Shown piece by piece: positions 422-59,494 of a stretch of DNA of 64,000 nucleotides. Source of the DNA: Sipunculus nudus. Lineage: Eukaryota > Annelida > Sipuncula > Golfingiida > Sipunculidae. The stretch spans positions 72,213,416 through 72,277,415 of the forward strand of contig CM049315.1 of the NCBI GenBank assembly GCA_026874595.1, read 5' to 3'. Every line of letters starts with the position of its first letter. The first letter of the stretch is position 1. A model generated the notes under the pieces. That model was not told where the DNA came from. It saw only the letters and a program-made list of their open reading frames with translations, and did not search any database. Made by a program: the position numbers and the translations under genes.

Positions 422-1696
422 TTTTTTTTTTTTTTTTTTTAATTGCTCGCCGGAAATCTTCGATTTCTGCAGGCAGGTTGGCCAGTCGCAAATGTCTGTT
501 TGTTGCTTGCCGGAAATCTTCGATTTCTGCAAGCAGGTTGGTCAGTCGCGGATGTCTGTTTGTTGCTTGCCGGAAATCTTCGATTTCTGCAAGCAGGTTG
601 GTCAGTCGCGGATGTCTGTTTGTCTGTTTGTTTGTTTGTCTGTCTGTCTGTCTGTCTGTGTACTCTCTACAGGCCACAATTTTCCAGCAATTGCTTTCAA
701 ACTTATACAGCTGGTAGACAAGCAAAAGTCCTGGAGGCCTATTTTTTTTGGGCATTATAGGTCAAATGTCAAGGGCAAGGTCATCAAAAGTATACAAAAC
801 GGTTTTTTGTTCATATCTGTGTTAATATTGGTCGTATCTACTTCAACAGTAGCTCATTTTAATCGTCATTCCAAGGCCTGTTTTCTGGTATGTAGCTGAC
901 TCAATTTGCGGTAACCATGGTAACGCATTTTTGGGGAAAAGTGCTGATATTTTTCTAAATTTGTCAGTTTTAAAGCTACAGAGGTCTAGTTTTTTGCTTC
1001 AGGTAGCATTCACCTAGTACTACAAGATTCTATTAAGAGTCTCGCAATATCTCGTATAATATCTCGTCAAACGAGATATTTCGAGATTTCAGTAATCTTG
1101 CCCTGGAGGCCACAGTTTTGCAGGAATCTTTTTGAAACTGACATATTGAAAGTCCTACACTATTATCTCGAAATCAATTTTTCATTTTTTTAATTCGGCC
1201 GCTAGGGGGCGCTGGGTGCAAACCTCTCCAACATATTATGTTTTGGCAATATCTCCAAAATTATAAGCCTCAATTACAAAAACTATAGTGTTTTTTTTTT
1301 CCTCTATGTCTTCTTCATGAACTCGTTTAGTCATCTGGTCTCAATCTTGTGTCACTTTGTCTGTGTGTCCGTCTGTTTCTCAGTTGTCCTCAAATCCGCT
1401 TGCTTGCCGGTTCTTTGCTTCTCACATATACCATTCTACAGGGGACAGTTTTGAAAGAATCCTTTTAAAACTATTACATCTTATGTCTTACACTAATATC
1501 TCGAAACCCATTTTTTCATTTTCCAGAATTGGCCGCTAGGGGGCGTTGCACATGACCCTCACTCACATATCATTATATTGGCCATATCTCTAAAACCCAA
1601 AGACTCAATTACATAAACTATAGCTTATGTTCTTCCTTTGAGTCTTCCCCATAACCTGGTTAAGTCATCTGGTCTCGGTCTTGTGTCACTTTGTCA
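422..1696 (+). mobile_element. Repeat module: minisatellite plus regulatory-motif body
   Basis: The module opens with poly-T (422-440) and three 60-bp minisatellite units (441-620), whose hairpins begin GCTCGCCGG or GCTTGCCGG. A (GTTT/GTCT)n run reaches 659. The body has a degenerate AGGTCA cluster (about 759-784), a perfect X-box-like GTAACCATGGTAAC (911-924), a 9-bp-stem hairpin AATATCTCG/CGAGATATT (1058-1080) and two CTCF-like cores about 334 bp apart (1199-1212 and 1533-1546). It leads into the next S421 copy. No 3' stem-loop/CTAG end is seen here. Confidence 0.75.
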
Positions 1697-2117
1697 GTAT
1701 GTCCATATAAACTTTATAAACGGAGGGAAACATGAATGCACAGAGTCATGCAGGAATGCACGATGACACGCGTTTTAGTAAGACAAAGACACGTGTAGGT
1801 ATGAGCGACAATCAGCGCAGTTTGCTCGTTTTGTGTAGGGTCCATCGGGCCAAATGCCAATTCAGGCCCGCAGCCTACGGGAGGAATTAATTGGCGTAGC
1901 GGGGACCACGGCCACTTCCTGGTAAAAACTTGTGAATAAATATACCGGACGGGCTGACCATTTTCTCAGGGCCATAGGAATGTCACCATTCCAGCGTGCC
2001 CTCAGACCTGGTCAGACCTGGTCAGACCTAAAACGCGTGCCTGCACATCTGTGCGCATGCAGGTGATTGCTGTCCAAAGTTTCAGTCGCTGTGTCCTTCA
2101 GGAAAGGACCCGAACCG
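1697..2117 (+). repeat. S421 module-end segment, copy 2
   Basis: This copy is nearly identical to the copy at position 1. It belongs to the subfamily with CAGTCGCTGTGTCC near its end and a long following poly-T (18 T). Confidence 0.9.
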
Positions 2118-3537
2118 TTTTTTTTTTTTTTTTTTAATTGCTCGCCGGAAATCTTCGATTTCTGCAGGCAGGTTGGCCAGTCGCAAATGTCTGTTTGTTG
2201 CTTGCCGGAAATCTTCGATTTCTGCAAGCAGGTTGGTCAGTCGCGGATGTCTGTTTGTTGCTTGCCGGAAATCTTCGATTTCTGCAAGCAGGTTGGTCAG
2301 TCGCGGATGTCTGTTTGTCTGTTTGTTTGTTGCTTGCCGGAAATCTTCGATTTCTGCAAGCAGGTTGGTCAGTCGCGGATGTCTGTTTGTTGCTTGCCGG
2401 AAATCTTCGATTTCTGCAAGCAGGTTGGTCAGTCGCGGATGTCTGTTTGTCTGTTTGTTTGTTTGTTTGTCTGTCTGTCTGTGTACTCTCTACAGGCCAC
2501 AATTTTCCAGCAATTGCTTTCAAACTTATAAAGCTGGTAGACAAGCAAAAGTCCTGGAGGCCTATTGTTTTTGGGCATTATAGGTCAAATGTCAAGGTCA
2601 AGGTCATCAAAAGTATACAAAACGGTTTTTTGTTCATATCTGTGTTAATATTGGTCGTATCTACTTCAACAGTAGCTCATTTTAATCGTCATTCCAAGGC
2701 CTGTCTTCTGGTGTGTAGCTGACTCAAATTTGCCGTAACCATGGTTACGAATTTTCGGGAAAAAGTCATGATATTCTGAAATAAGGGGTCTTATTTTTCT
2801 AACTTTGTCAGTTTTAAAGCTAGAGAGGTCTAGTTTTTTGCATGAGGTAGCATTTAACAAGTACTGCAAGATTTTATTAAAATTCTCGCGATATCTCGTT
2901 CAATATCTCGTCAAACGAGATATTTCGAGATTTCAGTAATCTTGCCCTGGAGGCCACAGTTTTGCAGGAATCTTTTTGAAACTGACATATCGTAAGTCCT
3001 ACACTATTATCTCGAAAAAAATTTTTCATTTTTTGAATTCGGCCGCTAGGGGGCGCTGGGTGCAAACCTCTCCAACATATCATGTTTTGGCAATACCTTC
3101 AAAATTATAAAGCTCAATTACATAAACCACAGCTTATTTTCTTCCTCTGAGTCTTTCCAAAATCCTGGTGTAGTCATTTCGACTCAATCTTGAGTCACTT
3201 TGTCAGTGTGTCCGTCTGTTTCTCAGTTGTCCTCAAATCCGCTTGCTTGCCGGTTCTTGCGTCTCACATATAGCATTCTACAGGACACAATTTTGAAAGA
3301 ATCCTTTTAAAACTATTACATCTTATGTCTTACACTAATATCTCGAAACCGATTTTTCATTTTCCAGAATTGGCCGCTAGGGGGCGCTGCACATGACCCT
3401 GACACACATATCATCATATTGGCCATATCTCTAAAACCCAAAGACTCAATTACATAAACCATAGCTTATGTTCTTCGTCTGAGTCTTCTCCATAACCTGG
3501 TTAAGTCATCTGGTCTCGGTCTTGTGTCACTTTGTCA
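2118..3537 (+). mobile_element. Repeat module with five-unit minisatellite
   Basis: Poly-T (2118-2135) is followed by five hairpin minisatellite units (2136-2446), one pair separated by an extra 12 bp of TCTGTTTGTTTG type, and then (GTTT/GTCT)n to 2482. The body carries AGGTCA-type half-sites (about 2583-2608), a perfectly palindromic GTAACCATGGTTAC (2735-2748), an ATCTCG hairpin (about 2910-2932) and CTCF-like cores at 3043 and 3373. The long + frame across 2138-2722 comes from the stop-poor minisatellite and is not proposed as a gene. Confidence 0.75.
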
Positions 3538-3958: not shown

Positions 3959-4730
3959 TTTTTTTTTAATTGCTTGCCGGAAATCTTCCATTTCTGCAGG
4001 CAGGTTGGCCAGTCGCAAATCTCTGTTTATTGCTTGCCGGAAATCTTCGATTTCTGCAAGCAGGTTGGTCAGTCGCGGATGTCTGTTTGTCTGTTTGTTT
4101 GTTGCTTGCCGGAAATCTTCGATTTCTGCAAGCAGGTTGGTCAGTCGCGGATGTCTGTTTGTCTGTTTGTTTGTTTGTTTGTCTGTCTGTCTGTGTACTC
4201 TCTACAGGCCACAATTTTCCAGCAATTGCTTTCAAACTTATACAGCTGGTAGACAAGCAAAAGTCCTGGAGGCCTATTGTTTTTGGGCATTATAGGTCAA
4301 ATGTCAAGGTCAAGGTCATCAAAAGTATACAAAACGGTTTTTTGTTCATATCTGTGTTAATATTGATCGTATCTACTTCAACAGTAACTCATTTTGATCG
4401 TCATTCCAAGGCCTGTCTTCTGGTGTGTAGCTGACTCAATTTGCGGTAACCATGGTAAGCATTTTTGGGGAAAAGTGCTGATATTTTTCTAAATTTGTCA
4501 GTTTTAAAGCTACAGAGGTCTAGTTTTTTGCTTCAGGTAGCATTCACCTAGTACTACAAGATTCTATTAAGAGTCTCACAATATCTCGTATAATATCTCG
4601 TCAAACGAGATATTTCGAGATTTCAGTAATCTTGCACTGGAGGCCACAGTTTTGCAGGAATCTTTTTGAAACTGACATATCTTAAGTCCTACACTATTAT
4701 CTCGAAATCAATTTTTCATTTTTTTAATTC

Positions 4731-6120
4731 GGCCACTAGGGGGCGCTGGGTGCAAACCTCTCCAACATATCATGTTTTGGCAATATCTCCAAAATTATAA
4801 GCCTCAATTACAAAAACTATAGTTTTTTTTTTCCTCTAAGTCTTCTTCATGAACTCATTTAGTCATCTGGTCTCAATCTTGTGTCACTTTGTCTGTGTGT
4901 CCGTCTGTTTCTCAGTTGTCCTCAAATCCGCTTGCTTGCCGGTTCTTGCGTCTCACATATAGCATTCTACAGGCCACAGTTTTGAAAGAATCTTTTTAAA
5001 ACTATTACATCTTATGTCTTACACTAATATCTCCAAACCGATTTTTCATTTTCCAGAATTGGCCGCTAGTGGGCGGTGCACTCAAACTTGCACAACATAT
5101 CATTTTTTGGCCATATCTCCAAAACTATAAACATCATTCACATAAACTATAGCTTATTTTCTTCCTCTGGGTCTTTCTAAAAACCTGGTGTATTCATTTG
5201 GTCTCAATCTTGAGTCACTTTGTCTGTGTGTCCGTCTGTTTCTCAGTTGTCCTCAAATTCGCTTGCTTGCCGGTTCTTGCGTTTCACATATAGCATTCTA
5301 CAGGCCACAGTTTTGAAAGAATCCTTTTAAAACTATTACATCTTATGTCTTACACTAATATCTCGAAACCGATTTTTCATTTTCCAGAATTGGCCGCTAG
5401 GGGGCGGTGCACTCAAACTTGCACAACATATCATTTTTTGGCCATATCTCCAAAACTATAAACATCATTTACATAAACTATAGCTTATTTTCTTCCTCTG
5501 GGTCTTTCCAAAAACCTAGTGTATTCATTTGGTCTCAATCTTGAGTCACTTTGTCTGTGTGTCCGTCTGTTTCTCAGTTGTCCTCAAATTCGCTTGCTTG
5601 CCGGTTCTTGCGTCTCACATATAGCATTCTACAGGCCACAGTTTTGAAAGAATCCTTTCAAAACTATTACATCTTATGTCTTACACTAATATCTCGAAAC
5701 CGATTTTTCATTTTCCAGAATTGGCCGCTAGGGGGTGGTGCACTCAAACTTGCACAACATATCATTTTTTGGCCATATCTCCAAAACTATAAACATCATT
5801 TACATAAACTATAGCTTATTTTCTTCCTCTAGGTCTTTCCAAAAACCTGGTGTATTCATTTGGTCTCAATCTTGAGTCACTTTGTCTGTGTGTCCGTCTG
5901 TTTCTCAGTTGTCCTCAAATTCGCTTGCTTTCCGGTTCTTGCGTCTCACATATAGCATTCTACAGGCCACAGTTTTGAAAGAATCCTTTTAAAACTATTA
6001 CATCTTATGTCTTACACTAATATCTCGAAACCGACTTTTCATTTTACAGAATTGGCCGCTAGGGGGCGGTGCACTCAAACTTGCACAACATGTCATTTTT
6101 TGGCCATATCTCCAAAACTA
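4731..6120 (+). repeat. 330-bp tandem array, first copy
   Basis: Five successive units have CTCF-like cores at 4733, 5063, 5393, 5723 and 6053, a constant step of 330 bp. Each unit also repeats TATCTCGAAACC, GCCATATCTCCAAAACTAT, a TATAGCTTATTTTCTTCCTC stretch and GTGTCCGTCTGTTTCTCAG. The cores differ: CCACTAGGGGGCGC in the first, a G-to-T change (TAGTGGGC) in the second, GGGGGTGG in the fourth. No function is assigned. Confidence 0.92.
4733..4746 (+). promoter_or_regulatory. CTCF-like core motif (exact consensus match)
   Basis: CCACTAGGGGGCGC satisfies the commonly quoted CTCF core CCASYAGRKGGCRS at every position. It is the best representative of the form found at the head of 330-bp units. 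Binding is not shown, and the organism's CTCF specificity is unknown. Confidence 0.5.
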
Positions 6121-6519
6121 TTAACCTCATTTACATAAATTATAGCTTATTATCTTCCTCTTAGGTTTATTCATAACATGATTAAGTCATCTGTTCTCAA
6201 TCTTGGGTCAGTATGTTTGCCTGTTTGTCAGTTGTCCTCACTTTGCCTGCTTCCTGGTTCTTGCGTCTCACATGTAGCATTCTACTGGCCACAGTTTTGA
6301 AGGAATCGTTTTGTAAATTACACTTGTCATATATCGTGATGATATCTGGAAGTCCTATGTTTATTATTTAAATAAGTCAAAGGTCAAGGTCAAGGTGATC
6401 AAAATATATCAAAATCTTATTTTCTTTAGAACTTTGTTAATATTGGTTCTTTCTTCACAAACTATGGATTATTTTCTTTCACTTTGACACTGCTCGTTCA
6501 TCTGACTAACCTTACATCA

Positions 6520-6552
6520 TTTCCGGCAAGCGCGTGACCTCAGGTCATCTAG
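6520..6552 (+). other. Rolling-circle-like 3' terminus
   Basis: TTTCCGGCAAGC is followed by the stem-loop TGACC-TCA-GGTCA, then T, then CTAG, with T as the first flanking base. Twelve other copies lie at 12441, 14853, 20747, 22494, 25990, 30054, 33757, 37831, 48834, 50265, 58083 and 63586. Helitron-group 3' ends are known for a short hairpin just before CTRR. The fit here is good, but the hairpin is unusually close to the end. Confidence 0.55.
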
Positions 6553-7628
6553 TTTGTTTGTCTGTCTGTCTGTGTACTCTCTACAGGCCACAATTTTCCA
6601 CCAATTGCTTTCAAACTTATAAAGCTGGTAGACAAGCAAAAGTCCTGGAGGCCTATTGTTTTTGGGCATTATAGGTCAAATGTCAAGGTCAAGGTCATCA
6701 AAAGATTACAAAACGGTTTTTTGTTCATATCTGTGTTAATATTGGTCCTATCTACTTCAACAGTAGCTCATTTTAATCGTCATTCCAAGGCCTGTCTTCT
6801 GGTGTGTAGCTGACTCAAATTTGCCGTAACCATGGTTACGAATTTTTGGGAAAAAGTCATGATATTCTGAAATAAGGGGTCTTATTTTTCTAACTTTGTC
6901 AGTTTTAAAGCTAGAGAGGTCTAGTTTTTTGCATGAGGTAGCATTTAACAAGTACTGCAAGATTTTATTAAAATTCTCGCGATATCTCGTTCAATATCTC
7001 GTCAAACGAGATATTTCGAGATTTCAGTAATCTTGCCCTGGAGGCCACAGTTTTGCAGGAATCTTTTTGAAACTGACATATCGTAAGTCCTACACTATTA
7101 TCTCGAAACAACTTTTTCATTTTTTGAATTCGGCCGCTAGGGGGCGCTGGGTGCAAACCTCTCCAACATATCATGTTTTGGCAATACCTTCAAAATTATA
7201 AAGCTCAATTACATAAACCACAGCTTATTTTCTTCCTCTGAGTCTTTCCAAAATCCTGGTGTAGTCATTTCGACTCAATCTTGAGTCACTTTGTCAGTGT
7301 GTCCGTCTGTTTCTCAGTTGTCCTCAAATCCGCTTGCTTGCCGGTTCTTGCGTCTCACATATAGCATTCTACAGGACACAGTTTTGAAAGAATCCTTTTA
7401 AAACTATTACATCTTATGTCTTACACTAATATCTCGAAACCGATTTTTCATTTTCCAGAATTGGCTGCTAGGGGGCGCTGCACATGACCCTGACACACAT
7501 ATCATCATATTGGCCATATCTCTAAAACCCAAAGACTCAATTACATAAACTATAGCTTATGTTCTTCCTTTGAGTCTTCCCCATAACCTGGTTAAGTCAT
7601 CTGGTCTCGGTCTTGTGTCACTTTGTCA
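6553..7628 (+). mobile_element. 5'-truncated module body
   Basis: It starts straight after the CTAG end with TTTGTTTG(TCTG)n and has no GCTTGCCGG hairpin. It carries half-sites (about 6675-6700), palindromic GTAACCATGGTTAC (about 6826-6839), an ATCTCG hairpin (about 7000) and CTCF-like cores at about 7133 and 7463. The latter reads GGCTGCTAGGGGGCGC. It ends at S421 copy 4. Confidence 0.75.
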
Positions 7629-8049
7629 GTATGTCCATATAAACTTTATAAACGGAGGGAAACATGAATGCACAGAGTCATGCAGGAATGCACGATGACA
7701 CGCGTTTTAGTAAGACAAAGACTCGTGTAGGTATGAGCGACAATCAGCGCAGTTTGCTCGTTTTGTGTAGGGTCCATCGGGCCAAATGCCAATTCAGGCC
7801 CGCAGCCGACGGGATGAATTAATTGGCGTAGCGGGGACCACGGCCATTTCCTGGTAAAAACTTGTGAATAAATATACCGGACGGGCTGACCATTTTCTCA
7901 GGGCCATAGGAATGTCACCATTCCAGTGTGCCCTCAGACCTGGTCAGACCTGGTCAGACCTAAAACGCGTGCCTGCACATCTGTGCGCATGCAGGTGATT
8001 GCTGTCCAAAGTTTCGGTCGGTGAGTCCTTCAGGAAAGGACCCGAACCG
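7629..8049 (+). repeat. S421 module-end segment, copy 4
   Basis: Short-poly-T subfamily (9 T, 8050-8058), with GCCGACGGGATG in place of GCCTACGGGAGG. It is the paralogue of the copy at 15962 within repeat A. Confidence 0.9.
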
Positions 8050-8194
8050 TTTTTTTTTAATTGCTTGCCGGAAATCTTCCATTTCTGCAGGCAGGTTGGC
8101 CAGTCGCAAATCTCTGTTTATTGCTTGCCGGAAATCTTCGATTTCTGCAAGCAGGTTGGTCAGTCGCGGATGTCTGTTTGTCTGTTTGTTTGTT
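8050..8194 (+). repeat. Poly-T and two 60-bp minisatellite units
   Basis: Nine T are followed by two hairpin units (one with TCTTCCATTTC, one with TCTTCGATTTC) and a short TCTGTTTGTTTG run leading directly into the hairpin at 8195. The array is contracted relative to those at 2136 and 39696. Confidence 0.88.
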
Positions 8195-8363
8195 GCTTGC
8201 CGGAATCAAAGATTTCGGCAAGCATATTGCTCAGTTGCGTATGTCTGTTTGTCTGTTTGTTTGTCTGCACTCTCCTGGCCACAATTTTGCCACAATCACC
8301 TTGAAACTTACAGGGATGATAAAAAACATAATTTCTAGGTGCCCTATTGTTTTTGGTTAAAAT

Positions 8364-8388
8364 AGGTCAAAGGTCAAGGTCAAGGTCA
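8364..8388 (+). promoter_or_regulatory. Nuclear-receptor-like half-site cluster (DR1 plus DR0)
   Basis: Four direct AGGTCA half-sites occur, the first two separated by one A (a DR1 arrangement) and the next two abutting. The latter create overlapping TCAAGGTCA, the extended half-site recognised by NR5A/ERR-type monomers. Equivalent clusters recur once per module body. Binding is inferred from the motif alone. Confidence 0.4.
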
Positions 8389-9113
8389 CGACAGGTATGG
8401 TTAACGGTTTTTGCACTATAACTTCGCCATAATTAGGCTTATCCACTTCTGCAATAGCTCATTTTTTTCGTCATCACCTGGCCTTTCTTTTGACATGTAG
8501 CTTACTTAAATTTGCTGTTACCATGGTTACGCAATTTTGGGGAGAAATCATGGAATTTCCTGATATTTTTCAAATTTGCAGCAATCGTACTGATTCTGAG
8601 ATATTTTATGTAACACAAGAATATCTCGAAATTGCTTTTTTCAGATTTTGGAAATGGCCGCCAGGGGGCGTTGCAGATGAAAAAACATGAAAATTTGTTT
8701 TGGTGCTATACCTCCAGAACTATTAAACATTGGGCCATTTCCATCACAGCACCTTCAACTGGGGTCTATGGGCTTATTTTTGCGCATAGGTGCCAAAGTG
8801 CGCCATTGCCAGATTTCTCTATTTTTGGGGTAAAACTTTTGAATTTTGAAAATATGCAGTTTTCAGCTTCTAACTCTGTCAGTTTTTATGCTGGAGAGGT
8901 CAATTTTTTTGCATCTTGTAGCCCTTGGTGAGCTCTCGGTGATCCAATCAAAAATCTTGCAAAATCTCGCACCGTTTCTCGTCAAACGAGAGTCTTCGAG
9001 ATTTCATTAAATATGACCTACAGGTTGCATTTTTTTAACAATGGCTTTGAAATTGATATATTTTGTGTTATTTATAAATATCTCGAAATCAGTTTTTCAT
9101 TTTTTGGAAATAG

Positions 9114-9127
9114 CCACCAGGGGGCGT
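9114..9127 (+). promoter_or_regulatory. CTCF-like core motif (CCACCAGGGGGCG form)
   Basis: AGCCACCAGGGGGCGTGG closely matches the vertebrate CTCF consensus around CCACCAGGGGGCG. The same form recurs at about 17444, 26954, 34728, 40535, 52388 and 58698, always on the + strand. Confidence 0.5.
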
Positions 9128-9409
9128 GGTACCTGAAACACTGTAACATATCATTTTTCTGCAATATCTAAAATAATCTTAAACATGGCACAATTTTTAT
9201 CGTTGTTTCTTAAACTAGGAACATTGGCTTATTCCTCCGCACATGTAGCTTTGTGCTGTCGTTACCATGGTTACCAAATTTGTGGGTTAAACTTGACGAT
9301 CTGAAAATATGCAGTTTTTGGCTTCTATCTCGGTTAATATTTATGTGTCAAGGGTCTAGTTTTTTGCATAAGGCTGCTTCCCCTTGGTTCTGAGTCATTC
9401 AATTGCAAG

Positions 9410-10236
9410 TCTCGTCAAATTTCGCTCGGTTTATCGTCAAACGAGAAAAAACGAGATTTCACGGAAATGCTTATAACTCGGCGACTTTTACAGCTACACA
9501 GGTGTAGTTTTCGGCATTTCATAACATATGACCAGCTTGACACGCCAGAAAAGAAATCAGGCCACATCTCGCACCATATCTCGTCAAGCGAGAAAAAACG
9601 AGATATCATGGAAATGCTTATAACTAGGCGACTTTTACAGCTACTCAGGTCTAGTTTATGGCATTTGGTAACATTTGGCCAACTTGAAATAGTAAAACTG
9701 CGATACTTGGCGAAATCTCGCACTATATCTGGTCAAATGTGGAAAAACGAGATTTCACAGAAATGCATATAAGTCGGCGACTTTCACGGCTAGACAGGTC
9801 TAGTTTTTGGCATTCATTAACATTTGGACGGCTTGACATGACAAACCTGCAAGACTGGCCAAATCTCGCACCATATCTCGTGAAACGATAAAAAAGGAGA
9901 TTTCACAGAAATACTAATAACTCGGCAACTTTTACAGCTAGACAGATGTAGTTTTCGCCATTTCATAACATTTAGAGAGTTTGATATGACAAATCTACAA
10001 GACTGGCCAAATCCTGCACCATATCTCGTCAAACGAGAAAACACGAGAGTACACGGAAATGCTTATAACTCGGCGACTTTTACAGCTAGACGGATCTAGT
10101 TTTCGCCATTTTGTAACGTTTGGCCGTCTTGACATAATAAAACTGCTCGTCTTGCCAAATCTCGTACTATATCTCGTCAAGCGAGAAAAAAACATGATTT
10201 CACGTAAATGCTGATAACACGGCGACTTTTGCAGCT
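9410..10236 (+). repeat. 148-bp tandem array, copy 1
   Basis: About six units are marked by TCTCGTCAAACGAGA-type hairpins at 9434, 9581, 9731, 9878, 10026 and 10174, giving steps of 147-150 bp. Each unit contains CGAGATTTCACGGAAATGCT, TATAACTCGGCGACTTTTAC and TAGTTTTCGGCATTTCATAAC. Units are diverged from each other, so the array is old, but it has been copied intact to 17740, 27251 and 35024. The length is close to one nucleosome core. Confidence 0.9.
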
Positions 10237-10244
10237 AGTTTGTT

Positions 10245-10291
10245 GCTTGCCGGAATCAAAGATTTCGGCAAGCATGTTGGTCAGTTGCGTA

Positions 10292-10322
<31 letters not shown>

Positions 10323-12473
10323 TTGTTGGTTTGTTTGTCTGCACTGTCCTGGCCACAATTTTGCCACAATCACCTAGAAACTTTCAGAGATGATGGAGAA
10401 TTAAATTTCTAGGTGCCCTATTGTTTTTGGTTAAAATAGGTTAAAGGTCAAGGTCAAGGCCATCGAAAAACCTCGAAACCTTATTTTCCTCATAACTTGG
10501 TCAAAAATTGTCGTATCAACCTCATTCTAACCCCATTTTGTTCGTCTTTCCATTGCCCATATCCTGGTATGATCAACCTTGTCAGTATGTCTGTCTGTTT
10601 CAGGGTTGTTGTCAATTTTGTCAACGGCCTTGTTGTTCTTTCTGACATTTAGCACTCTCCATGCCACAATTTTGCCACAATCACCTTGAAACTTTCAGAT
10701 ATGATGGGCAACGAAATAGGTCAAAGGTCAAGGTCGAGGTCATCAAAAGTATACAAAACGGGTTTTTCTTCATATCTTTGTAACTGTTAGTCGTATCTAC
10801 TTGAACTATAGCTCATTTTAATCGTCATCCAATGGCCTTTCTTCTGGTGGGTACTTGACTCAAATTTGCCGTTTCAATGGTAACACATTTTCGGGGAAAA
10901 ATTATCATATTTGAAAATCAATGGACTAATTTGTCAGTTTTAATGCTAGAGAGGTCTAGTTTTTTCCATTAGGTTGCATTCGTTTAATACTACATGATTT
11001 TATTAAAAGTCTGGCAATATCTCGTAAGATAGCTCATCAAACGAGATATTTCGAGATTTCATTAATCTTGCCCTGGAGGCCATAGTTTTGCAGGAATTTT
11101 TTTAAAACTGATATATTTCAAGTCTTACCCTAGTATCTCAAATTTGTTTTTTTTTTTCATTTTTTTGGATAGGGCCGCTAGGGGGCGCTGGATGCGAACC
11201 TCCCCAACATATCATATTTTGGCCATACCTCCAACATTATAAGCCTCAATTACATAAACTATAGCTTATTTTCTTCCTCTGAGTCTTCTCCATAACCTGG
11301 TGTAGTCATCTGGTCACAATTTTGTGTCACTTTGTCAGTGTGTCTGTCTGTTTGATAGTTGTCCTCAAATTCGCCTGCTTGCTCTTGCGTCTCACATATA
11401 GTCTTACACTAATATCTCGAAACCAATTTTTCATTTTCCGGATATGGCCGCTAGGGGGCGCTGAACTCGAACCTCTCCCAACATATCATGCTTTGGCAAT
11501 ATCTCCAAAACTATAAACCTCAGCTGCATAAACTGTAGCTTTTTTCTTTCTTTGAGTCGTCTCCATAAGCTGGAGTAGTCATCTGGACTCAATCTTGATT
11601 CACTTTGTCAGTGTGCCTGTCTGTTTGTCAGTTGTCCTCAAATTCACCTGCTTGCTGGTTCTTGCGTCTCACATATAGCATTCTATAGGCCACAGTTTTG
11701 ACGGAATCCTTTTGAAACTATTACACCTTATGTCTTACACTAATATCTCGAAACAGATTTTTCATTTTCCGGATATGGCCACTAGTGTGCGCTGCACACG
11801 ACCCTCACACACATACCCTTGTATTGGCCATATCTCTACACCCAAAGCCTCAGATACATAAACTATAGCTTATTTTCTTCCTTTGAGTCTTCTCCATAAC
11901 CTGATTAAGGCATCTGGTTTCAATCTTCTGTCACTTTGTCAGTGTGTCCATCTGTTTGTCCGTTATCCTCAAAGTCGCCTGCTTGCTGGTTCTTACGCCT
12001 TACATATAACATTCTACAGGCCACAGCTTTGACGGAATCCTTTTGAAACTGGGACATCTCTTGTCATACACTAATAATACGAAACGCGTTTGTCGTTTTT
12101 TGGAATACGTCCGCTAGAGGGCGCTACAGTCGAACCTCCCAAGTATATCATTAATTCGCCATACCTCCAAAACTATTAATCTAAATTACATAAATTATAA
12201 CTCATTTTCTTCCTTTGAATCTTCTCCATAACTAGGTTAAGTCATCTGGTGTCAATCTTGTCTCACAAAGTCACTATGTCTGTCTGTTCGTCTTTTGTTG
12301 TCAGTTTTGTCTGCTTGCCTGTTCTTTTGTCCCATATGTCATTCTACGGGCCACATATTCTCAGCAATGTCCCTGAGAGTCATTCCATTAATAGAAAACC
12401 GACAATATGTTCTTTCTGTCCGTCTGTGTTTCACTTCCGATTTCCGGCAAGCGTTCGACCTATGGTCGTCTAG
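10245..12473 (+). mobile_element. Rolling-circle-like module with both ends intact (2,229 bp)
   Basis: The 5' end is the hairpin GCTTGCCGG...CGGCAAGC (10245-10273), preceded by CTAGTTTGTT. The 3' end is TTTCCGGCAAGC, the stem CGACC-TAT-GGTCG and CTAG (12441-12473), with T following. Inside are (GTCT)n (about 10291-10339), two AGGTCA clusters (about 10443 and 10709), a decayed X-box (about 10871), CTCF-like cores (about 11173 and 11446, weaker at 11777 and 12112) and 330-bp-type units. It has no coding capacity, so it would have to be mobilised in trans. Confidence 0.55.
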
Positions 12474-14885
12474 TCTGTTTGTTTGTTTGTCTGTCTGTCT
12501 GTCTGTGTACTCTCTACAGGCCACAATTTTGCAGCAATTGCTTTTAAACTTACACAGCTGATAGACAAGCAAAAGTCCTCGAGGCCTATTGTTATTGGGC
12601 GACATAGGTCCAAGGTCAAGGTCAAGGTCATCAAAACTTCTCAAAACGGTTTTTTCTTCATATCTTTGTAACTGTTAGTGGTATCTTCTTCAAACATAGC
12701 TCATTTTAAACGCCATTCCCAGGCCTTTCTTCTGGTGTGTAGCTCTTTCAAATTTGCCGTAACCATGGTTACGCATTTTGGGGAAAAGTCATGATATTCT
12801 GAAATAAGGGGTCTTATTTTTCTAACTTTGTCAGTTTTAAAGCTAGAGAGGTCTAGTTTTTTGCATCAGGTAGCATTTAACAAGTACTGCAAGATTTTAT
12901 TAAAAGTCTCGCGATATCTCGTACAATATCTCGTCAAACGAGATATTTCGAGATTTCAGTAATCTTGCCCTGGAGGCCACAGTTTTGCAGGAATCTTTTT
13001 GAAACTGGCATATCTTAAGTCCTACACTATTATCTCGAAATTAATTTTTCATTTTTTTAATTCGGCCGCTAGGGGGCGCTGGGTGCAAACCTCTCCAACA
13101 TATCATGTTTTGGCAATATCTCCAAAATTATAAGCCTCAATTACAAAAACTATAGTTTTTTTTTTCCTCTAAGTCTTCTTCATGAACTCATTTAGTCATC
13201 TGGTCTCAATCTTGTGTCACTTTGTCTGTGTGTCCGTCTGTTTCTCAGTTGTCCTCAAATCCGCTTGCTTGCCGGTTCTTGCGTCTCACATATAGCATTC
13301 TACAGGCCACAGTTTTGAAAGAATCTTTTTAAAACTATTACATCTTATGTCTTACACTAATATCTCCAAACCGATTTTTCATTTTCCAGAATTGGCCGCT
13401 AGTGGGCGGTGCACTCAAACTTGCACAACATATCATTTTTTGGCCATATCTCCAAAACTATAAACATCATTCACATAAACTATAGCTTATTTTCTTCCTC
13501 TGGGTCTTTCTAAAAACCTGGTGTTTTCATTTGGTCTCAATCTTGAGTCACTTTGTCTGTGTGTCCGTCTGTTTCTCAGTTGTCCTCAAATTCGCTTGCT
13601 TGCCGGTTCTTGCGTTTCACATATAGCATTCTACAGGCCACAGTTTTGAAAGAATCCTTTTAAAACTATTACATCTTATGTCTTACACTAATATCTCGAA
13701 ACCGATTTTTCATTTTCCAGAATTGGCCGCTAGGGGGCGGTGCACTCAAACTTGCACAACATATCATTTTTTGGCCATATCTCCAAAACTATAAACATCA
13801 TTTACATAAACTATAGCTTATTTTCTTCCTCTGGGTCTTTCCAAAAACCTAGTGTATTCATTTGGTCTCAATCTTGAGTCACTTTGTCTGTGTGTCCGTC
13901 TGTTTCTCAGTTGTCCTCAAATTCGCTTGCTTGCCGGTTCTTGCGTCTCACATATAGCATTCTACAGGCCACAGTTTTGAAAGAATCCTTTCAAAACTAT
14001 TACATCTTATGTCTTACACTAATATCTCGAAACCGATTTTTCATTTTCCAGAATTGGCCGCTAGGGGGTGGTGCACTCAAACTTGCACAACATATCATTT
14101 TTTGGCCATATCTCCAAAACTATAAACATCATTTACATAAACTATAGCTTATTTTCTTCCTCTAGGTCTTTCCAAAAACCTGGTGTATTCATTTGGTCTC
14201 AATCTTGAGTCACTTTGTCTGTGTGTCCGTCTGTTTCTCAGTTGTCCTCAAATTCGCTTGCTTTCCGGTTCTTGCGTCTCACATATAGCATTCTACAGGC
14301 CACAGTTTTGAAAGAATCCTTTTAAAACTATTACATCTTATGTCTTACACTAATATCTCGAAACCGACTTTTCATTTTACAGAATTGGCCGCTAGGGGGC
14401 GGTGCACTCAAACTTGCACAACATGTCATTTTTTGGCCATATCTCCAAAACTATTAACCTCATTTACATAAATTATAGCTTATTATCTTCCTCTTAGGTT
14501 TATTCATAACATGATTAAGTCATCTGTTCTCAATCTTGGGTCAGTATGTTTGCCTGTTTGTCAGTTGTCCTCACTTTGCCTGCTTCCTGGTTCTTGCGTC
14601 TCACATGTAGCATTCTACTGGCCACAGTTTTCAAGGAATCGTTTTGTAAATTACACTTGTCATATATCGTGATGATATCTGGAAGTCCTATGTTTATTAT
14701 TTAAATAAGTCAAAGGTCAAGGTCAAGGTGATCAAAATATATCAAAATCTTATTTTCTTTAGAACTTTGTTAATATTGGTTCTTTCTTCACAAACTATGG
14801 ATTATTTTCTTTCACTTTGACACTGCTCGTTCATCTGACTAACCTTACATCATTTCCGGCAAGCGCGTGACCTCAGGTCATCTAG
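12474..14885 (+). mobile_element. 5'-truncated module with 3' terminus
   Basis: It begins at TCTGTTTG(TCTG)n after the previous CTAG and ends with the terminus at 14853-14885 (T-A type stem). It contains half-sites (about 12607-12630), palindromic GTAACCATGGTTAC (about 12761), an ATCTCG hairpin (about 12930) and the second 330-bp array. The higher-order repeat A boundary falls inside it, near 13014. Confidence 0.6.
13064..14450 (+). repeat. 330-bp tandem array, second copy
   Basis: Counterpart of the array at 4731, with CTCF-like cores near 13065, 13395, 13726, 14056 and 14387. Private variants of individual units, such as TAGTGGGC in unit 2 and GGGGGTGG in unit 4, are shared by both arrays. 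The 330-bp amplification therefore predates the 8.3-kb duplication. Confidence 0.92.
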
Positions 14886-15961
14886 TTTGTTTGTCTGTCT
14901 GTCTGTGTACTCTCTACAGGCCACAATTTTCCACCAATTGCTTTCAAACTTATAAAGCTGGTAGACAAGCAAAAGTCCTGGAGGCCTATTGTTTTTGGGC
15001 ATTATAGGTCAAATGTCAAGGTCAAGGTCATCAAAAGTATACAAAACGGTTTTTTGTTCATATCTGTGTTAATATTGGTCCTATCTACTTCAACAGTAGC
15101 TCATTTTAATCGTCATTCCAAGGCCTGTCTTCTGGTGTGTAGCTGACTCAAATTTGCCGTAACCATGGTTACGAATTTTTGGGAAAAAGTCATGATATTC
15201 TGAAATAAGGGGTCTTATTTTTCTAACTTTGTCAGTTTTAAAGCTAGAGAGGTCTAGTTTTTTGCATGAGGTAGCATTTAACAAGTACTGCAAGATTTTA
15301 TTAAAATTCTCGCGATATCTCGTTCAATATCTCGTCAAACGAGATATTTCGAGATTTCAGTAATCTTGCCCTGGAGGCCACAGTTTTGCAGGAATCTTTT
15401 TGAAACTGACATATCGTAAGTCCTACACTATTATCTCGAAACAACTTTTTCATTTTTTGAATTCGGCCGCTAGGGGGCGCTGGGTGCAAACCTCTCCAAC
15501 ATATCATGTTTTGGCAATACCTTCAAAATTATAAAGCTCAATTACATAAACCACAGCTTATTTTCTTCCTCTGAGTCTTTCCAAAATCCTGGTGTAGTCA
15601 TTTCGACTCAATCTTGAGTCACTTTGTCAGTGTGTCCGTCTGTTTCTCAGTTGTCCTCAAATCCGCTTGCTTGCCGGTTCTTGCGTCTCACATATAGCAT
15701 TCTACAGGACACAGTTTTGAAAGAATCCTTTTAAAACTATTACATCTTATGTCTTACACTAATATCTCGAAACCGATTTTTCATTTTCCAGAATTGGCTG
15801 CTAGGGGGCGCTGCACATGACCCTGACACACATATCATCATATTGGCCATATCTCTAAAACCCAAAGACTCAATTACATAAACTATAGCTTATGTTCTTC
15901 CTTTGAGTCTTCCCCATAACCTGGTTAAGTCATCTGGTCTCGGTCTTGTGTCACTTTGTCA
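14886..15961 (+). mobile_element. 5'-truncated module body
   Basis: Repeat-A counterpart of 6553-7628: a microsatellite start after CTAG, half-sites, the GTAACCATGGTTAC palindrome (about 15162), an ATCTCG hairpin, and CTCF-like cores near 15466 and 15797. Confidence 0.75.
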
Positions 15962-16372: not shown

Positions 16373-16517
16373 TTTTTTTTTAATTGCTTGCCGGAAATCT
16401 TCCATTTCTGCAGGCAGGTTGGCCAGTCGCAAATCTCTGTTTATTGCTTGCCGGAAATCTTCGATTTCTGCAAGCAGGTTGGTCAGTCGCGGATGTCTGT
16501 TTGTCTGTTTGTTTGTT
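16373..16517 (+). repeat. Poly-T and two 60-bp minisatellite units
   Basis: Counterpart of 8050-8194: nine T, two hairpin units and a short TCTGTTTGTTTG run. Confidence 0.88.
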
Positions 16518-18568: not shown

Positions 18569-18574
18569 TTTGTT

Positions 18575-18621
18575 GCTTGCCGGAATCAAAGATTTCGGCA
18601 AGCATGTTGGTCAGTTGCGTA

Positions 18622-18652
<31 letters not shown>

Positions 18653-24007: not shown

Positions 24008-24028
24008 TTTTTTTTTTTTTTTTTAATT

Positions 24029-44300: not shown

Positions 44301-46029
44301 TTTATGTAACATAAGAATATCTCGAAACGGGTTTTTCAGATTTTGGAAATGGCCGCCAGGGGGCGTTGCAGATGAAAAAACATGAAAATTTGTTTTGGTG
44401 CTATACCTCCAGAACTATTAAACATTGGGCCATTTCCATCACAGCACCTTAAACTAGGGTCCATGGGCTTATTTTTGCGCATAGGTGCCAAAGTGCGCTA
44501 TTGCCAGATTTCTCTATTTTTGGGGTAAAACCTTTGAATTTTGAAAATATGCAGTTTTCAGCTTCTAACTCTGTCAGTTTTTATGCTAGAGAGGTCAAAA
44601 TTTTTGCAACTTGTAGCCCTTGGTGAGTTCTCGGTGATCCAACCAAAAATCTTGCAAAATCTCGCACCGTTTCTCGTCGAATGAGATTTCCCGATTTCAC
44701 GGTGACATGCCCTACAGGCCACAGATATGCAGGCATCCTTTTGAAACTGATACATGTTACTTCATACATTATTATCTCGAAAGCAATTTTTCAGTTTTTG
44801 GAAAATTACCGCTAGGGGGCGCTGCACTGCAACCCCGTACCTACTATCATTGTTTAACCATATCTCCAAAACTACACATTTTAGGTACACAAACTGTACA
44901 GCATATGAGTTGGCGTTTCATGGCCTTTCTGCCCATGGCCTCTTTTGTTTAATCAAACACGGTCACCACAAATTTTAGCAACTTTTTAAAAATTAAAACC
45001 CGCATGCACCAATACATATGCCATCACGCATGCATGCACGCGTTTTAGTATGAAAGACAGACACGCTTTCTCGTGACTGCAAAAATTATAGCGTTCGCCG
45101 TATAAAATAAGTGACCACAGGCACTCTTTGCGGGCCGGTTTGCCATTTCTGTCGCGTTATAGTTTATTGCTTGCCGGAATCAGAGATTTCGACAAGTATG
45201 TTGATCAGTTCCGTTTGTTTGTTTGTCTGTATGTCCCCGCTCTACAGGCCACAATTTTGCACCAATCGTCCTGAAACTTATAGATAGAGTGTATAATCGG
45301 TTCTTCTCGGAGCCTATTGTTTTTGGTCATGATCGGTCAAGGGTCAAGGTCAAGGTCACCAAAAAGCTCAAAAACGGTTTTTTCTTCATACCTTCGTCAA
45401 AAATAGCCGTAGGCACCTAATCTGTAGCCCGTTTTATTTGCCACTGCATGGCCACTTCCAGCACTGCAAAATTGCCTCATTTCCCTGTTACCATGGTTAC
45501 GCAATTTTGGGGAGAAATCATGGAATTTCGTGATATTTTTCAAATTTGCAGCAATTTTACTGATTCTGAGATATTTTATGTAACATAAGAATATCTCGAA
45601 ACGGGTTTTTCAGATTTTGGAAATGGCCGCCAGGGGGCGTTGCAGATGAAAAAACATGAAAATTTGTTTTGGTGCTATACCTCCAGAACTATTAAACATT
45701 GGGCCATTTCCATCACAGCACCTTAAACTAGGGTCCATGGGCTTATTTTTGCGCATAGGTGCCAAAGTGCGCTATTGCCAGATTTCTCTATTTTTGGGGT
45801 AAAACCTTTGAATTTTGAAAATATGCAGTTTTCAGCTTCTAACTCTGTCAGTTTTTATGCTAGAGAGGTCAAAATTTTTGCAACTTGTAGCCCTTGGTGA
45901 GTTCTCGGTGATCCAACCAAAAATCTTGCAAAATCTCGCACCGTTTCTCGTCGAATGAGATTTCCCGATTTCACGGTGACATGCCCTACAGGCCACAGAT
46001 ATGCAGGCATCCTTTTGAAACTGATACAT
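41345..46029 (+). repeat. 1,274-bp tandem array, 3 full and 1 partial monomer
   Basis: Monomers start at 41345, 42619, 43893 and 45167 (steps of exactly 1,274 bp). The last stops after 863 bp at GATACAT. Copies show no difference in the stretches compared. Each monomer has a 5' hairpin (GCTTGCCGGAATCAGAGATTTCGACAAG), (GTTT)n, a GGTCAAGG half-site cluster, an X-box GTTACCATGGTTAC, CTCF-like cores CCGCCAGGGGGCGT and CCGCTAGGGGGCGC, and a tail rich in ATGCATGCACGCG ending GTCGCGTTATAGTT. Such uniformity implies very recent amplification, homogenisation or an assembly artefact. Confidence 0.95.
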
Positions 46030-57530: not shown

Positions 57531-57714
57531 TTCAGGATGTCTGTCTGTTTGTCAGTGATCCTCTATTTCACCTGCTTGCTGGATCTTGCGTCTTACAGTT
57601 AGCAATCTTCAGGCCACAGTTTTTCAGTATGTCTGTCTGTTTGTCAGTGATCCTCATTTTCGCCTGATTGCTGGATCTTGCGTCTTACAGTTAGCAATCT
57701 TCAGGCCACAGTTT
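57531..57714 (+). repeat. 92-bp tandem duplication
   Basis: TTCAGGATGTCTGTCTG... recurs at 57623 as TTCAGTATGTCTGTCTG... with near-identical following sequence. It is absent from the paralogue near 48350, so it arose after the 9.2-kb duplication. Confidence 0.85.
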
Positions 57715-58114
57715 TGAAGGAATCCTTTTGGAATTGGAACATCTCTTACAATAATATATACATCTTGGAACATTTCTTACAATAATATCTCAAAAGAAAT
57801 TTTTAATTTTTGGGATATGGCCGCTAGGGGATGCTGCGGTAGAGCCTCCACACCATATCATTTTTTGGCCATATCTCCGACATTATAAACTCTACCTTCA
57901 CTTGTAGTCAGTTATCTCAGGTGTGTCAGTATATTTGTATGTTTTGAGCTATGTCTGATTTCATGTTTTTTGTGTGATATATGTCGTTCAACAGGCCAAA
58001 CGTTCCAGCAATCGCTTTAAAAGTCATTCAATTGATAGAAAACCGTCAGTTTGTCCTGTTTGTCCATCTGTCTGTCATTTAAGTCCGGCAAGCTCTCGAC
58101 CTATGGTCGTCTAG

Positions 58115-59494
58115 TTTGTTTGTCTGTCTGTTTGTTTGTCTGTATGTACACGCGCTACAGGCCACAGTTTTTAAGCAATCGCTCTGAAACTTATGCATTA
58201 AGTGTAAGATTGGTTCTCCTCGGAGCCTATTGTTTTTGGTCATGTTCGGTCAAAGGTCAAGGTCAGGGTCACCAAAAAACCTAAAATATTTATTTTCTTC
58301 ATATCTTCGTCAATTATAATCGTAGCCGCATAATCTGTAGCTCATTTTATTCCTCTTTATGTTATCTTTCCAAGTGTTAGCACATTTTTCCGGTCAAATG
58401 TTACCATGGTAACGTATTTTTGGGGGAAAATCAGAAAATTCGAAAATGTCACTCTAAATTTCTCATTTTTTAAGTTAGAGAGGTCTAGTTTTTTGCGTTG
58501 TGTAGGATTTAATATGCTCTATGGAAAATTAATGGAAGTCTCGCAAAATCTCGTGCCATTTGTCGTCAAATGAGACTTTTCTAGATTTCATTAAATACGA
58601 TTTAGAGGTGCCATTTTTACAGCTAAGGTTCTAAAAGTGACATATTTTCTGTTGTTCTGGATTATCTCGAACTTGTTTTTTCATTTTTTTAAATTAGCCA
58701 CCAGGGGGCGTGGTACTGGAAACACTGCAACTTACCATTTTTCTGCAATATCTCAAAAAATATTAAACGTGGCACACTGTTTTCTGTCTTATCTGAAACT
58801 AGGATCGTTGGCTTATTCCTGCGTACATGTAGCTTTGCGCTGCTGTTACCATGGTTACCAAATTTTGGGGTAAAACTTGGCATTCTGAAAATAATAAGTT
58901 TTTTGCTTCTATCTCTGTTGATATTTATACTACAAGGGTCTAGTTTTCTGCATGAGGTAGCATTCCCTTGCCTCTAATGCAGTTAATTGCAAGTCTCGTA
59001 GAATCTCGCTCTGTTTTCCGTCAAACGAGAAATTACGAGATTTCACAGAAATGCTTATAACTTGGTCACCTTTTCGGCTAAAGAGGAGCAGTTTTCAGCA
59101 TTTTGTTGCGTTTTGGAAGCTTAACATGATAATAACTTATATCTCGCCACATCTCGTATCAACTCCCTCCAAACGAGAATATTCGAGAATTCGAACAAAT
59201 GTCTATATCTCTGTCATTTTAATGCCAGAGATTTTATTTTTCTATTGTTCAAGATTCACTTGACTAGTTTGAAGTGACAAAATTGAATATCTCGTCTTAT
59301 CTCGCACCATTTCTTGTCAAACGAGAACATGGGACCATTCAAAGATACGCCTATAATTCTGTTATTTTAATGCTGAAGACCTTTAGTTTTCAGCATTCGA
59401 TAGCGTCTAACACTCTCGGTCACATTATGTGATTATATTGTAAGTTTCGTCAAATCTGGGATCGTTTTTTTCTTCAAATAAAAAAGTAAATCCT
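58115..59494 (+). mobile_element. Module body with diverged 148-bp-like units
   Basis: It opens (TTTG/TCTG)n after CTAG, with no 5' hairpin. It carries half-sites (about 58245), X-box GTTACCATGGTAAC (about 58401), a TCGTCAAATGAGA hairpin, CCACCAGGGGGCGT (58698-58711), a second X-box (about 58847) and three diverged 148-bp-like units with TCAAACGAGAA hairpins to about 59490. It is the last dense module before the change of sequence type. Confidence 0.7.

What the first reader, a model, noticed from the sequence alone, without database searches (positions are those of the whole stretch)
1197..58711. About 60 CTCF-like cores, all in one orientation
The core YAGGGGGCG within CCGCTAGGGGGCGC, CCGCCAGGGGGCGT or CCACCAGGGGGCGT occurs about 60 times by eye, with weaker variants in addition. 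All are on the + strand and I noticed none reversed. Many are 330 bp apart; the 1,274-bp monomer has two. The motif survives in units whose flanks are otherwise strongly diverged, and much of the variation falls at positions the CTCF consensus leaves free (A/G, C/T, A/G). Transposon-borne CTCF sites are known (rodent B2 SINEs), but a one-way satellite of them would be unusual and could act as a boundary or loop-anchor array.
Basis: partly seen in the sequence, partly recalled or inferred. Interest (0 to 1): 0.85.

Follow-up and report, generated by a model that had tools for sequence, protein, structure and literature searches.

The report
One-way CTCF-like sites in Helentron arrays
A rolling-circle type of jumping DNA in an unnamed animal carries what looks like the landing site of CTCF, a protein that folds chromosomes, and copies it head to tail into long arrays that all point one way; whether CTCF really lands there is untested.

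Summary
Confirmed: 63 exact YAGGGGGCG cores, all on +. The CTCF matrix (recalled) gives 76 sites at p<1e-6 on +, 0 on - (shuffles 0.14). The genome is 1.43 Gb; CCRCYAGGGGGCG occurs 13,398 times against 9 for the reversed pattern, and 9,079 (68%) carry this repeat's upstream block. The genome encodes an 11-finger CTCF orthologue and 87 two-part CTCF-type sites (control 1). Of 215 units found by flanks, 211 keep the site at p<1e-5. The core changes more slowly than flanks, and its changes avoid positions CTCF needs; but two neighbouring blocks are as conserved and one CpG in the site decays. Several array edges carry hairpins typical of non-autonomous Helentrons (HINEs), and hundreds of end-to-start junctions point to head-to-tail copying. 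So one-way polarity comes with the element's copying, not from separate selection; mouse Dxz4 is a working precedent. Binding, boundary activity and the organism's name were not testable. New variant of a known kind.

The parts
1196..58713 (+). Span of 82 units (both flanks found at E<0.01) holding the CTCF-like 19-mer (consensus TGGCCGCTAGGGGGCGCTG); 80 of 82 pass the CTCF matrix at p<1e-5, 76 at p<1e-6; none on the - strand at p<1e-6
4641..6312 (+). 331-bp tandem units (5.1 copies), one CTCF-like core each; further arrays at 12974-14645, 21280-22286, 24775-25782, 30560-31486, 32542-33549, 38337-39263
   Evidence: (TRF)
41340..46029 (+). 1,274-bp monomers in tandem, 99.97% identical, two CTCF-like cores each (for example 41802 and 42258)
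4161..22285 (+). Large direct repeat, 98% identical: 4161-13991 and 12473-22285 (shift 8,312); similar pairs at shifts 7,775 and 9,185
24027..24307 (+). HINE-type left module: subterminal inverted repeat GCTTGCCGGAAATC + IR GATTTCtGCAAGC hairpins, followed by a (TGTC/TTTG)n microsatellite; further copies at 443-659, 2138-2482, 3969-4194, 8060-8264, 16383-16595, 31922-32074, 39698-39974, 41153-41357
   Evidence: the same hairpin stands at the 5' edge of the repeat in L041, L026, L037, L035, L028
25993..26022 (+). HINE-type right module: CCGGCAAGC (complement of the left subTIR) + palindrome TGACCTCTGGTCA + TCTAG; similar ends begin at 6523, 12444, 14856, 20750, 22497, 30057, 33760, 37834, 48836, 50268, 58085
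26019..26039 (+). Head-to-tail junction: 3' end CTAG, then TTTGTT, then 5' end GCTTGCCGGAA of the next copy; also 33786. At 10235 and 18565 the CTAG belongs to a 148-bp repeat, i.e. an inner copy truncated at its 3' end meets the next 5' end
   Evidence: 460 matches of CTAGN{2,14}GCTTGCCGGAA genome-wide against 2 in the control
9434..10238 (+). 148-bp tandem repeats without the core, part of the same composite; also 17764-18568, 27275-28081, 35048-35854
8360..8535 (+). Module with nuclear-receptor-like direct half-sites (AAGGTCAAGGTCA) and an RFX-like palindrome (GTTACCATGGTTAC); repeated through the window; the names of these motifs are from memory

Best explanation
The window lies inside an array of about 102 kb or more (with at least one interruption) made of head-to-tail copies of a non-autonomous Helentron (HINE) family whose internal repeats carry a CTCF recognition site. 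SHOWN: the motif, its single orientation, its genome-wide dispersal in this repeat, HINE-type ends at several edges, end-to-start junctions, Helitron-like Rep domains in the genome, and a CTCF orthologue whose fingers 3-5 are nearly identical to the human ones (6-7 less so). INFERRED: rolling-circle copying multiplies and concatenates the element, so the site spreads and each array is one-way by construction; CTCF binds at least some copies, probably depending on methylation because about three quarters of copies carry a CpG at the site's second C. MORE SPECULATIVE: where occupied, such an array stops cohesin arriving from one side and works as a strong directional boundary, as Dxz4 does on the mouse inactive X.
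For: Motif. Genome: 6,990 + 6,408 exact 13-mers against 5 + 4 for the reversed pattern; 9,079 of 13,398 have the repeat's ATATCTCGAAA 18-44 bases upstream (control 0). CTCF: best hit 375 bits, 56% identity over 308 aa, next hit 198 bits; fingers 3-5 nearly identical to human; 13 of 17 PDB matches are CTCF, the best 7w1m at 2e-109. Canonical two-part sites in this genome: TGCANTN{3,9}CCASYAGRKGGCR 87 against 1. Site retained in 211 of 215 flank-defined units at p<1e-5, and in 65 of 76 distinct clusters at p<1e-6. Core slower than flanks, GC sites 5.00 against 10.81 steps. Changes avoid CTCF-critical positions, 0 of 5000 nulls with CpG changes included or removed. One orientation per locus: 137 same, 1 opposite neighbour pairs over 22 fetched stretches. 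HINE-type ends, and a 3.1-kb element with both ends in L037; CTAG-to-start junction pattern 460 against 2; Helitron_like_N 143 matches, seven in frames over 2,000 aa. The array runs from about C10:72,205,558 beyond 72,307,415 with 129 matrix sites on + and 0 on -.
Against: In 215 units 7 of 160 flank windows are as conserved as the core; the lowest shown come from blocks at -35 and +52. Given where the core changed, base choice is CTCF-like only when CpG changes are counted (17 of 5000; 529 of 5000 without them; window alone 753 of 5000). The first CpG of the site decays (9 C>T, 10 G>A, against 4 and 5 at the second core CpG and 2 and 8 at the one flank CpG), which suggests germline methylation and no standing protection. 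Matrix information does not clearly track conservation by position (rho 0.41, p 0.08, 13 of 190 offsets as good; rho 0.29, p 0.23, 26 of 185). Fingers 6 and 7 of the orthologue differ more from human than 3-5. The repeat lacks the TGCANT upstream motif (0 in the window) and mostly has G at position 6 and G at position 12, where two-part sites elsewhere in the genome prefer A (76 distinct strings copied against 17 outside one other repeat) and T (54 of 76). AGTGGGCG copies (10 of 215) do not fit the matrix. No occupancy data.
Confidence: 0.6

Rival explanations
1. Passive hitchhiking. The founder element happened to carry, or once used, a CTCF site; most copies are now methylated heterochromatin and unbound, and the array does nothing to chromosome folding. 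One-way orientation is only the footprint of head-to-tail copying.
For: Orientation is explained by direct repeats and end-to-start junctions. Core CpG decay. Other blocks equally conserved. The junction pattern clusters: 39 of the 55 matches listed on C1 lie in 62.2-67.8 Mb, which would fit satellite-like heterochromatin.
Against: Core slower than flanks even at G/C sites; non-CpG changes avoid CTCF-critical positions, 0 of 5000; two sites in L038 keep CCACCAGGGGGCG intact in strongly diverged flanks.
Confidence: 0.3
2. The conserved core is read by another C2H2 zinc-finger protein, for example one that silences the element, and its likeness to CTCF is partly coincidental.
For: The CTCF query gave 309 matches in this genome, showing many other C2H2 arrays. 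Further blocks are conserved with the core, so a larger complex may read the unit. The -35 block type is as numerous as the core (ATATCTCSAAA 82 on +, 0 on -; this word also fits part of the downstream block).
Against: A 19-bp match at p about 1e-9; most variants among copies (AGGTGGCG, AGAGGGCG, GGCA) stay within AGRKGGCR; two-part sites with another upstream sequence share the core. AGTGGGCG copies do not fit.
Confidence: 0.12
3. The core is kept because the element needs it for its own copying or transcription, not because the host uses it.
For: HINE-type family with conserved islands, plus nuclear-receptor-like and RFX-like motifs in the same element.
Against: The core sits in internal repeats of varying number; that HINE copying needs mainly the ends is recalled, not from a call.
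Confidence: 0.15
4. Chance or counting artefact of a duplicated G-rich word.
For: The window's copies are duplicates.
Against: 13,398 against 9 genome-wide; 65 of 76 distinct flank clusters pass p<1e-6.
Confidence: 0.01

Closest known systems
DXZ4/Dxz4 macrosatellite (with FIRRE and ICCE) of the mammalian X
   Same: Tandem array with CTCF sites of one polarity; the CTCF segment is conserved while the rest diverges; inverting Dxz4 swaps the direction of its contacts (PMC6985041, PMC3491370: passages read).
   Different: DXZ4 is a single X-linked locus with large units (3.8-5.7 kb in mouse) and proven CTCF occupancy; here the arrays are dispersed, transposon-derived, with units of 0.33-1.3 kb, and no occupancy data were available.
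Cg_HINE elements of Crassostrea gigas and DINE-1 of Drosophila (non-autonomous Helentrons)
   Same: Left module with subTIR, complementary IR and mostly tetranucleotide microsatellite; central satellite-like repeats in one orientation; right module with subTIR and palindrome; T-rich insertion sites (PMC7492417: abstract, first part of Results, passages).
   Different: Central repeats here are 331, 148 or 1,274 bp rather than mostly 140-180 bp, carry a CTCF-like site, and are stacked into arrays of about 100 kb. Sequence likeness to Cg_HINE or DINE-1 was not tested.
SINE-borne CTCF sites (rodent B2 and others; recalled, no call)
   Same: Mobile element spreads CTCF sites genome-wide.
   Different: Retrotransposon copies land singly in either orientation (recalled); here copies are concatenated head to tail.

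Membership tests
Non-autonomous Helentron (HINE) | 5' subTIR with complementary IR forming a hairpin, then microsatellite | tested here: met
   GCTTGCCGGAAATC..GATTTC.GCAAGC at 5 of 9 repeat edges inspected (L041, L026, L037, L035, L028), with (TGTC/TTTG)n after it in the window and L041; a sixth (L030) starts inside the hairpin; L032 and the two sides of the L040 junction do not show it
Non-autonomous Helentron (HINE) | 3' subTIR complementary to the 5' one, followed by a palindrome at the 3' end | tested here: met
   CCGGCAAGC + CGACCTATGGTCG or CGACCTCTGGTCG + TCTAG at 2 of 6 3' edges inspected (L034, L037); the other four (L027, L028, L032, L035) end elsewhere, so are truncated or unresolved
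Non-autonomous Helentron (HINE) | Insertion at TT / T-rich sites without target duplication | tested here: inconclusive
   Ends read CTAG|TT and TT|GCTTGCC, but no empty site was available
Non-autonomous Helentron (HINE) | Sequence-related autonomous Helentron partner | tested here: inconclusive
   143 Helitron_like_N matches; at the one locus examined a diverged copy of this repeat lies nearby but shared ends were not shown
CTCF binding site | Match to the CTCF core matrix above chance | tested here: met
   (matrix recalled, human)
CTCF binding site | CTCF protein present in the organism | tested here: met
CTCF binding site | Upstream secondary motif (recalled: present only in a subset of known sites) | tested here: not met
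   0 in the window
CTCF binding site | Occupancy in vivo or binding in vitro | not testable with these tools
   no ChIP or binding data
DXZ4-like directional boundary | Tandem CTCF sites of one polarity | tested here: met
   as sequence: 129 matrix sites on +, 0 on - over about 102 kb
DXZ4-like directional boundary | Insulation / orientation-dependent contacts | not testable with these tools
   no Hi-C

The most novel reading that the evidence does not exclude
A rolling-circle transposon family has turned CTCF sites into a self-propagating, one-way satellite: thousands of occupied sites, concatenated by head-to-tail transposition, act as dispersed DXZ4-like polar barriers that reshape chromosome folding in this animal, with the CpG in the site as a methylation switch, and with CTCF affinity perhaps favouring the element's own spread. 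A second, apparently unrelated tandem repeat with a period of about 2.43 kb carries a full two-part CTCF-type string, so recruitment of CTCF by satellites may have happened more than once here.
Probability: 0.25. Interest if true: 0.87.

Novelty: new variant of a known kind. Interest (0 to 1): 0.66.

Why it matters
The directional CTCF arrays that I could read about are a few loci on the mammalian X chromosome. If a rolling-circle transposon makes them at many places in another animal, it gives natural replicates, in both orientations and several lengths, to test whether array length and polarity set boundary strength, and whether loop extrusion stopped by CTCF operates outside vertebrates. 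A review of spiralian genome folding (PMC10658181, passages) says that direct evidence for either mode of TAD formation in invertebrates is lacking, while CTCF sites are enriched at TAD borders in one squid. It would also show a route by which a genome gains thousands of architectural sites with preset polarity.

Tried and rejected
Chance: rejected by shuffles and by the reversed-pattern control.

Protein-coding origin of the window: 10 of the 63 open frames of 100 aa or more were scanned against Pfam at E<=1; no transposase. Two frames pass a Pfam cut-off, both for KH_PARP14_4 over 21-22 residues; the rest are below cut-off. No tRNA and no Rfam match at gathering score.

Finding the repeat in other collections: the flank pattern had 0 matches in viral contigs; the core pattern gave 4 matches in genome contigs, all in records named as bacteria, taken as chance and not followed.

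Phylum: the molluscan haemocyanin domain gave no match, but nothing rang in the 14 control genomes either, so this says nothing about absence.

Autonomous partner: one Rep-bearing locus (open frame at C7:31,575,487-31,581,133) was fetched; a diverged copy of the 148-bp repeats lies about 5 kb downstream in opposite orientation, but shared ends were not shown.

Count of 3' ends genome-wide (pattern CCGGCAAGCNNNCGACC...): asked four times, never answered.

Correlation of matrix information with conservation: weak (rho 0.41, p 0.08; rho 0.29, p 0.23).

Papers: no paper in the held library has both CTCF and Helentron (0 hits). Other searches were seen as listings; passages were read in PMC10658181, PMC7492417 (also its abstract and the first part of Results), PMC3491370, PMC6985041 and PMC10325916. 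I do not claim that nothing else is in print.

Dropped or biased rows: the flank profiles were seeded with 13 units that had been picked by their core, so units without a core may be under-found. In the window three left-flank hits at E<0.01 have no paired right flank (46079, 55264, 57787). In the C1 stretches 150 left and 144 right hits gave 134 pairs, of which 104 have exact AGGGGGCG; one pair was left out of the 215-unit set because its flank ran off the stretch. The C1 stretches were chosen because they hold the core. One search counts 87 sites; I copied 80 strings (76 distinct) into the tally. From (55 sites) I copied the 23 distinct strings: 6 strings (38 sites) are one repeat, 17 strings are others.


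Full report
Observation. The core YAGGGGGCG is present 63 times on the + strand and never on the - strand. With the 19-bp CTCF matrix (recalled, human), 76 + sites and 0 - sites pass p<1e-6, against 0.14 per strand in 50 dinucleotide shuffles; the common form TGGCCGCTAGGGGGCGCTG has p about 1e-9. At p<1e-5 there are 80 on + and 4 on -, the 4 being copies of one other sequence.

Independence. All long repeats found in the window are direct, none inverted, with pairs up to 9.9 kb at 98% identity. The 80 matrix-defined units form 24 clusters at 95% flank identity and 16 at 85%. The one-way orientation is thus inherited by duplication and should not be counted as 60 independent events.

Units found by flanks. 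To avoid choosing units by their core, I built profiles of the left and right flanks alone, seeded with 13 units (themselves picked by core). With both flanks at E<0.01 they recover the 80 units in the window plus two more (46295, 57369) whose core is degraded; three left flanks have no right partner. In 20 fetched stretches from contig C1, chosen because they hold the core, they give 134 paired units, 104 with exact AGGGGGCG and 30 with variants. Of the 215 units aligned in the end, taking the best 19-mer within 12 columns of the core, 211 keep the CTCF match at p<1e-5 and 194 at p<1e-6; by distinct cluster, 65 of 76 (95% flank identity), 33 of 39 (90%) and 17 of 22 (80%) pass p<1e-6.

Core against flank. 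On a tree of flanks only, the window's inner core (13 columns) has 1.77 parsimony steps per site against 3.98 in flanks, and 0 of 165 flank windows are as low; at G/C sites the 19-column core has 2.20 against 5.39. With 215 units the core has 4.68 against 8.04, G/C sites 5.00 against 10.81; but now 7 of 160 flank windows of 13 columns (1 of 148 of 19 columns) are as low. The lowest shown come from two blocks, TAATATCTCGAAA starting 35 columns before the core and CATATCTCCAAAA starting 52 columns after the core's first base. A at position 9 is invariant (215 of 215), G at position 10 nearly so (214). So the core is one of at least three conserved islands, not the sole one.

Do changes respect CTCF? 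The 89 inferred core changes cost on average 2.05 bits of log-odds, against 3.47 (sd 0.30) if placed at random in the core (0 of 5000); with positions kept and only bases drawn, 17 of 5000 do as well. After removing 28 CpG-type changes the 61 others still avoid critical positions (0 of 5000), while base choice at the changed positions is not clearly better than expected (529 of 5000). In the window alone the two tests gave 19 and 753 of 5000. Against the reading: the first CpG (CCGC) decays often (9 C>T and 10 G>A, against 4 and 5 at the second core CpG and 2 and 8 at the one flank CpG), and C>T there harms the match. CTCF binding is inhibited by methylation of a C that the authors call C2 on the motif strand (PMC10325916, passages); I take this to be the same C, so most copies may be methylation-dependent.

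Genome context. The window is C10:72,213,416-72,277,415 of a 1.43-Gb genome. CCRCYAGGGGGCG occurs 6,990 + 6,408 times, the reversed pattern 5 + 4. At least 9,079 (68%) have ATATCTCGAAA 18-44 bases upstream, reversed control 0. Across 22 fetched stretches (L021-L042), neighbouring matrix sites within 5 kb have the same orientation in 137 of 138 pairs; the exception is a head-to-head junction in L040. The window's array starts at about C10:72,205,558 beside DNA without likeness to the window and continues beyond 72,307,415: 129 matrix sites on +, 0 on - (10 in L041, 76 in the window, 15, 14 and 14 in L042-L044). The far end was not reached. Within the window a 365-bp tandem repeat (59910-61357) and other DNA without the core interrupt the array at about 59.9-63.5 kb.

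The host's CTCF. The best match to human CTCF fingers (recalled sequence) is a locus on C11 covering all 11 fingers, 55-56% identity, 375 bits, next locus 198 bits. In finger 3 TSGELVRH is identical, finger 4 (VELSKLKRH) and finger 5 (DTYKLKRH) nearly so; fingers 6 (TQSNSLKAH) and 7 (GRKTDLKIH) differ more. Of 17 PDB matches at E<=1e-40, 13 are CTCF, led by 7w1m. Apart from the repeat, the two-part pattern TGCANTN{3,9}CCASYAGRKGGCR occurs 87 times against 1 reversed; the one such site that was fetched, in L031, lies in DNA without likeness to the window. With G instead of A at position 6 the pattern occurs 55 times against 0, but 38 of the 55 are one other repeat, leaving 17. So the genome holds canonical CTCF-type sites that tolerate G at position 6 as a minority form, and at position 12 prefer T (54 of 76 distinct strings). 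The repeat core is an acceptable but not the favourite form, and it lacks the upstream part (0 in the window). The upstream motif TGCANT is recalled.

What the repeat is. Five of nine inspected 5' edges begin with GCTTGCCGGAAATC..GATTTC.GCAAGC-type hairpins, in the window and L041 followed by a (TGTC/TTTG)n microsatellite; two of six inspected 3' edges end with CCGGCAAGC, the palindrome CGACCTATGGTCG or CGACCTCTGGTCG, and TCTAG|TT. An element spanning 3,126 bp with both ends lies in L037, between flanks without likeness to the window. These are the parts that define HINE elements in oyster (PMC7492417): subTIR, complementary IR, microsatellite, central satellite-like repeats, 3' subTIR and palindrome. 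The pattern CTAG-N{2,14}-GCTTGCCGGAA occurs 460 times against 2; about ten of the 100 listed are other arrangements, so about 410 may be end-to-start junctions by extrapolation. The pattern does not demand the palindrome: of the window's four, two have the full 3' palindrome and two follow a 3'-truncated inner copy; [quoted passage not shown] Helitron-like Rep domains are present (143 matches, seven of the listed ones in open frames over 2,000 aa).

Mechanism proposed. A HINE carrying a CTCF site was copied by rolling circle; tandem copies and later unequal exchange built arrays. CTCF probably reads the site where it is unmethylated. If so, an array of 100 or more same-facing sites would stop cohesin from one side very efficiently. 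Precedent: CTCF sites of mouse Dxz4 share a polarity and inversion of the locus swaps the contact direction (PMC6985041, passages), and the CTCF segment of DXZ4 is conserved while the rest of the unit diverges (PMC3491370, passages). Binding and barrier function are inference.

Other cargo. The element also holds AAGGTCAAGGTCA half-sites (TCAAGGTCA 59 on +, 0 on -) and RFX-like GTTACCATGGTWAC (17 on +, 8 on -), both far above shuffles. The half-sites lie in a well conserved stretch of their module (rank 22 of 417 windows over 25 copies), the RFX-like palindrome does not (rank 173 of 417). The likeness to nuclear-receptor and RFX motifs is from memory. CTCF is thus one of several regulatory-looking motifs on board.

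Verdict. The CTCF reading survives the tests that could be run, with the weaknesses told above. Polarity is best read as a by-product of transposon copying. I rate it a new variant of two known kinds, HINE satellites and DXZ4-like arrays, of high interest pending occupancy data.

Noticed in passing
G000:C17:31677703-31687434; C3:95742239-95752999; C6:9795358-9800249 and others: A second, apparently unrelated repeat carries a full two-part CTCF-type string, mostly TGCAATTGCATCCGGTAGATGGCG (38 of 55 sites); in tandem the spacing is mostly 2,427 bp.
   Followed up: no
window, e.g. 8360-8535 and throughout: The same element holds nuclear-receptor-like AAGGTCAAGGTCA and RFX-like GTTACCATGGTTAC motifs, far above shuffles.
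   Followed up: partly
window units, 35 columns before and 52 columns after the first base of each core: TAATATCTCGAAA and CATATCTCCAAAA, similar to each other and in the same orientation, are as conserved as the CTCF-like core. Their meaning is unknown.
   Followed up: partly
G000:C1:62.2-67.8 Mb: 39 of the 55 listed matches of the head-to-tail junction pattern on C1 lie in this 5.5-Mb stretch, perhaps pericentromeric.
   Followed up: no
L040:7067-7071 (C1:7657066-7657070): Direct head-to-head junction of two arrays of opposite orientation, the only orientation switch between neighbouring matrix sites in the stretches.
   Followed up: no
window 59910-61357: Separate 365-bp tandem repeat (3.9 copies) without the core.
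   Followed up: no
window 39591-40109 and 336-896: Translated hairpin repeats match 21-22 residues of the Pfam model KH_PARP14_4 (8.8e-9, 1.1e-5), above its cut-off; perhaps translated repeat sequence inside the model rather than a real domain.
   Followed up: no
window, e.g. 8978, 10025, 12930: Frequent inverted motif TCTCGT-N2-4-ACGAGA (23 copies, 0 in shuffles).
   Followed up: no
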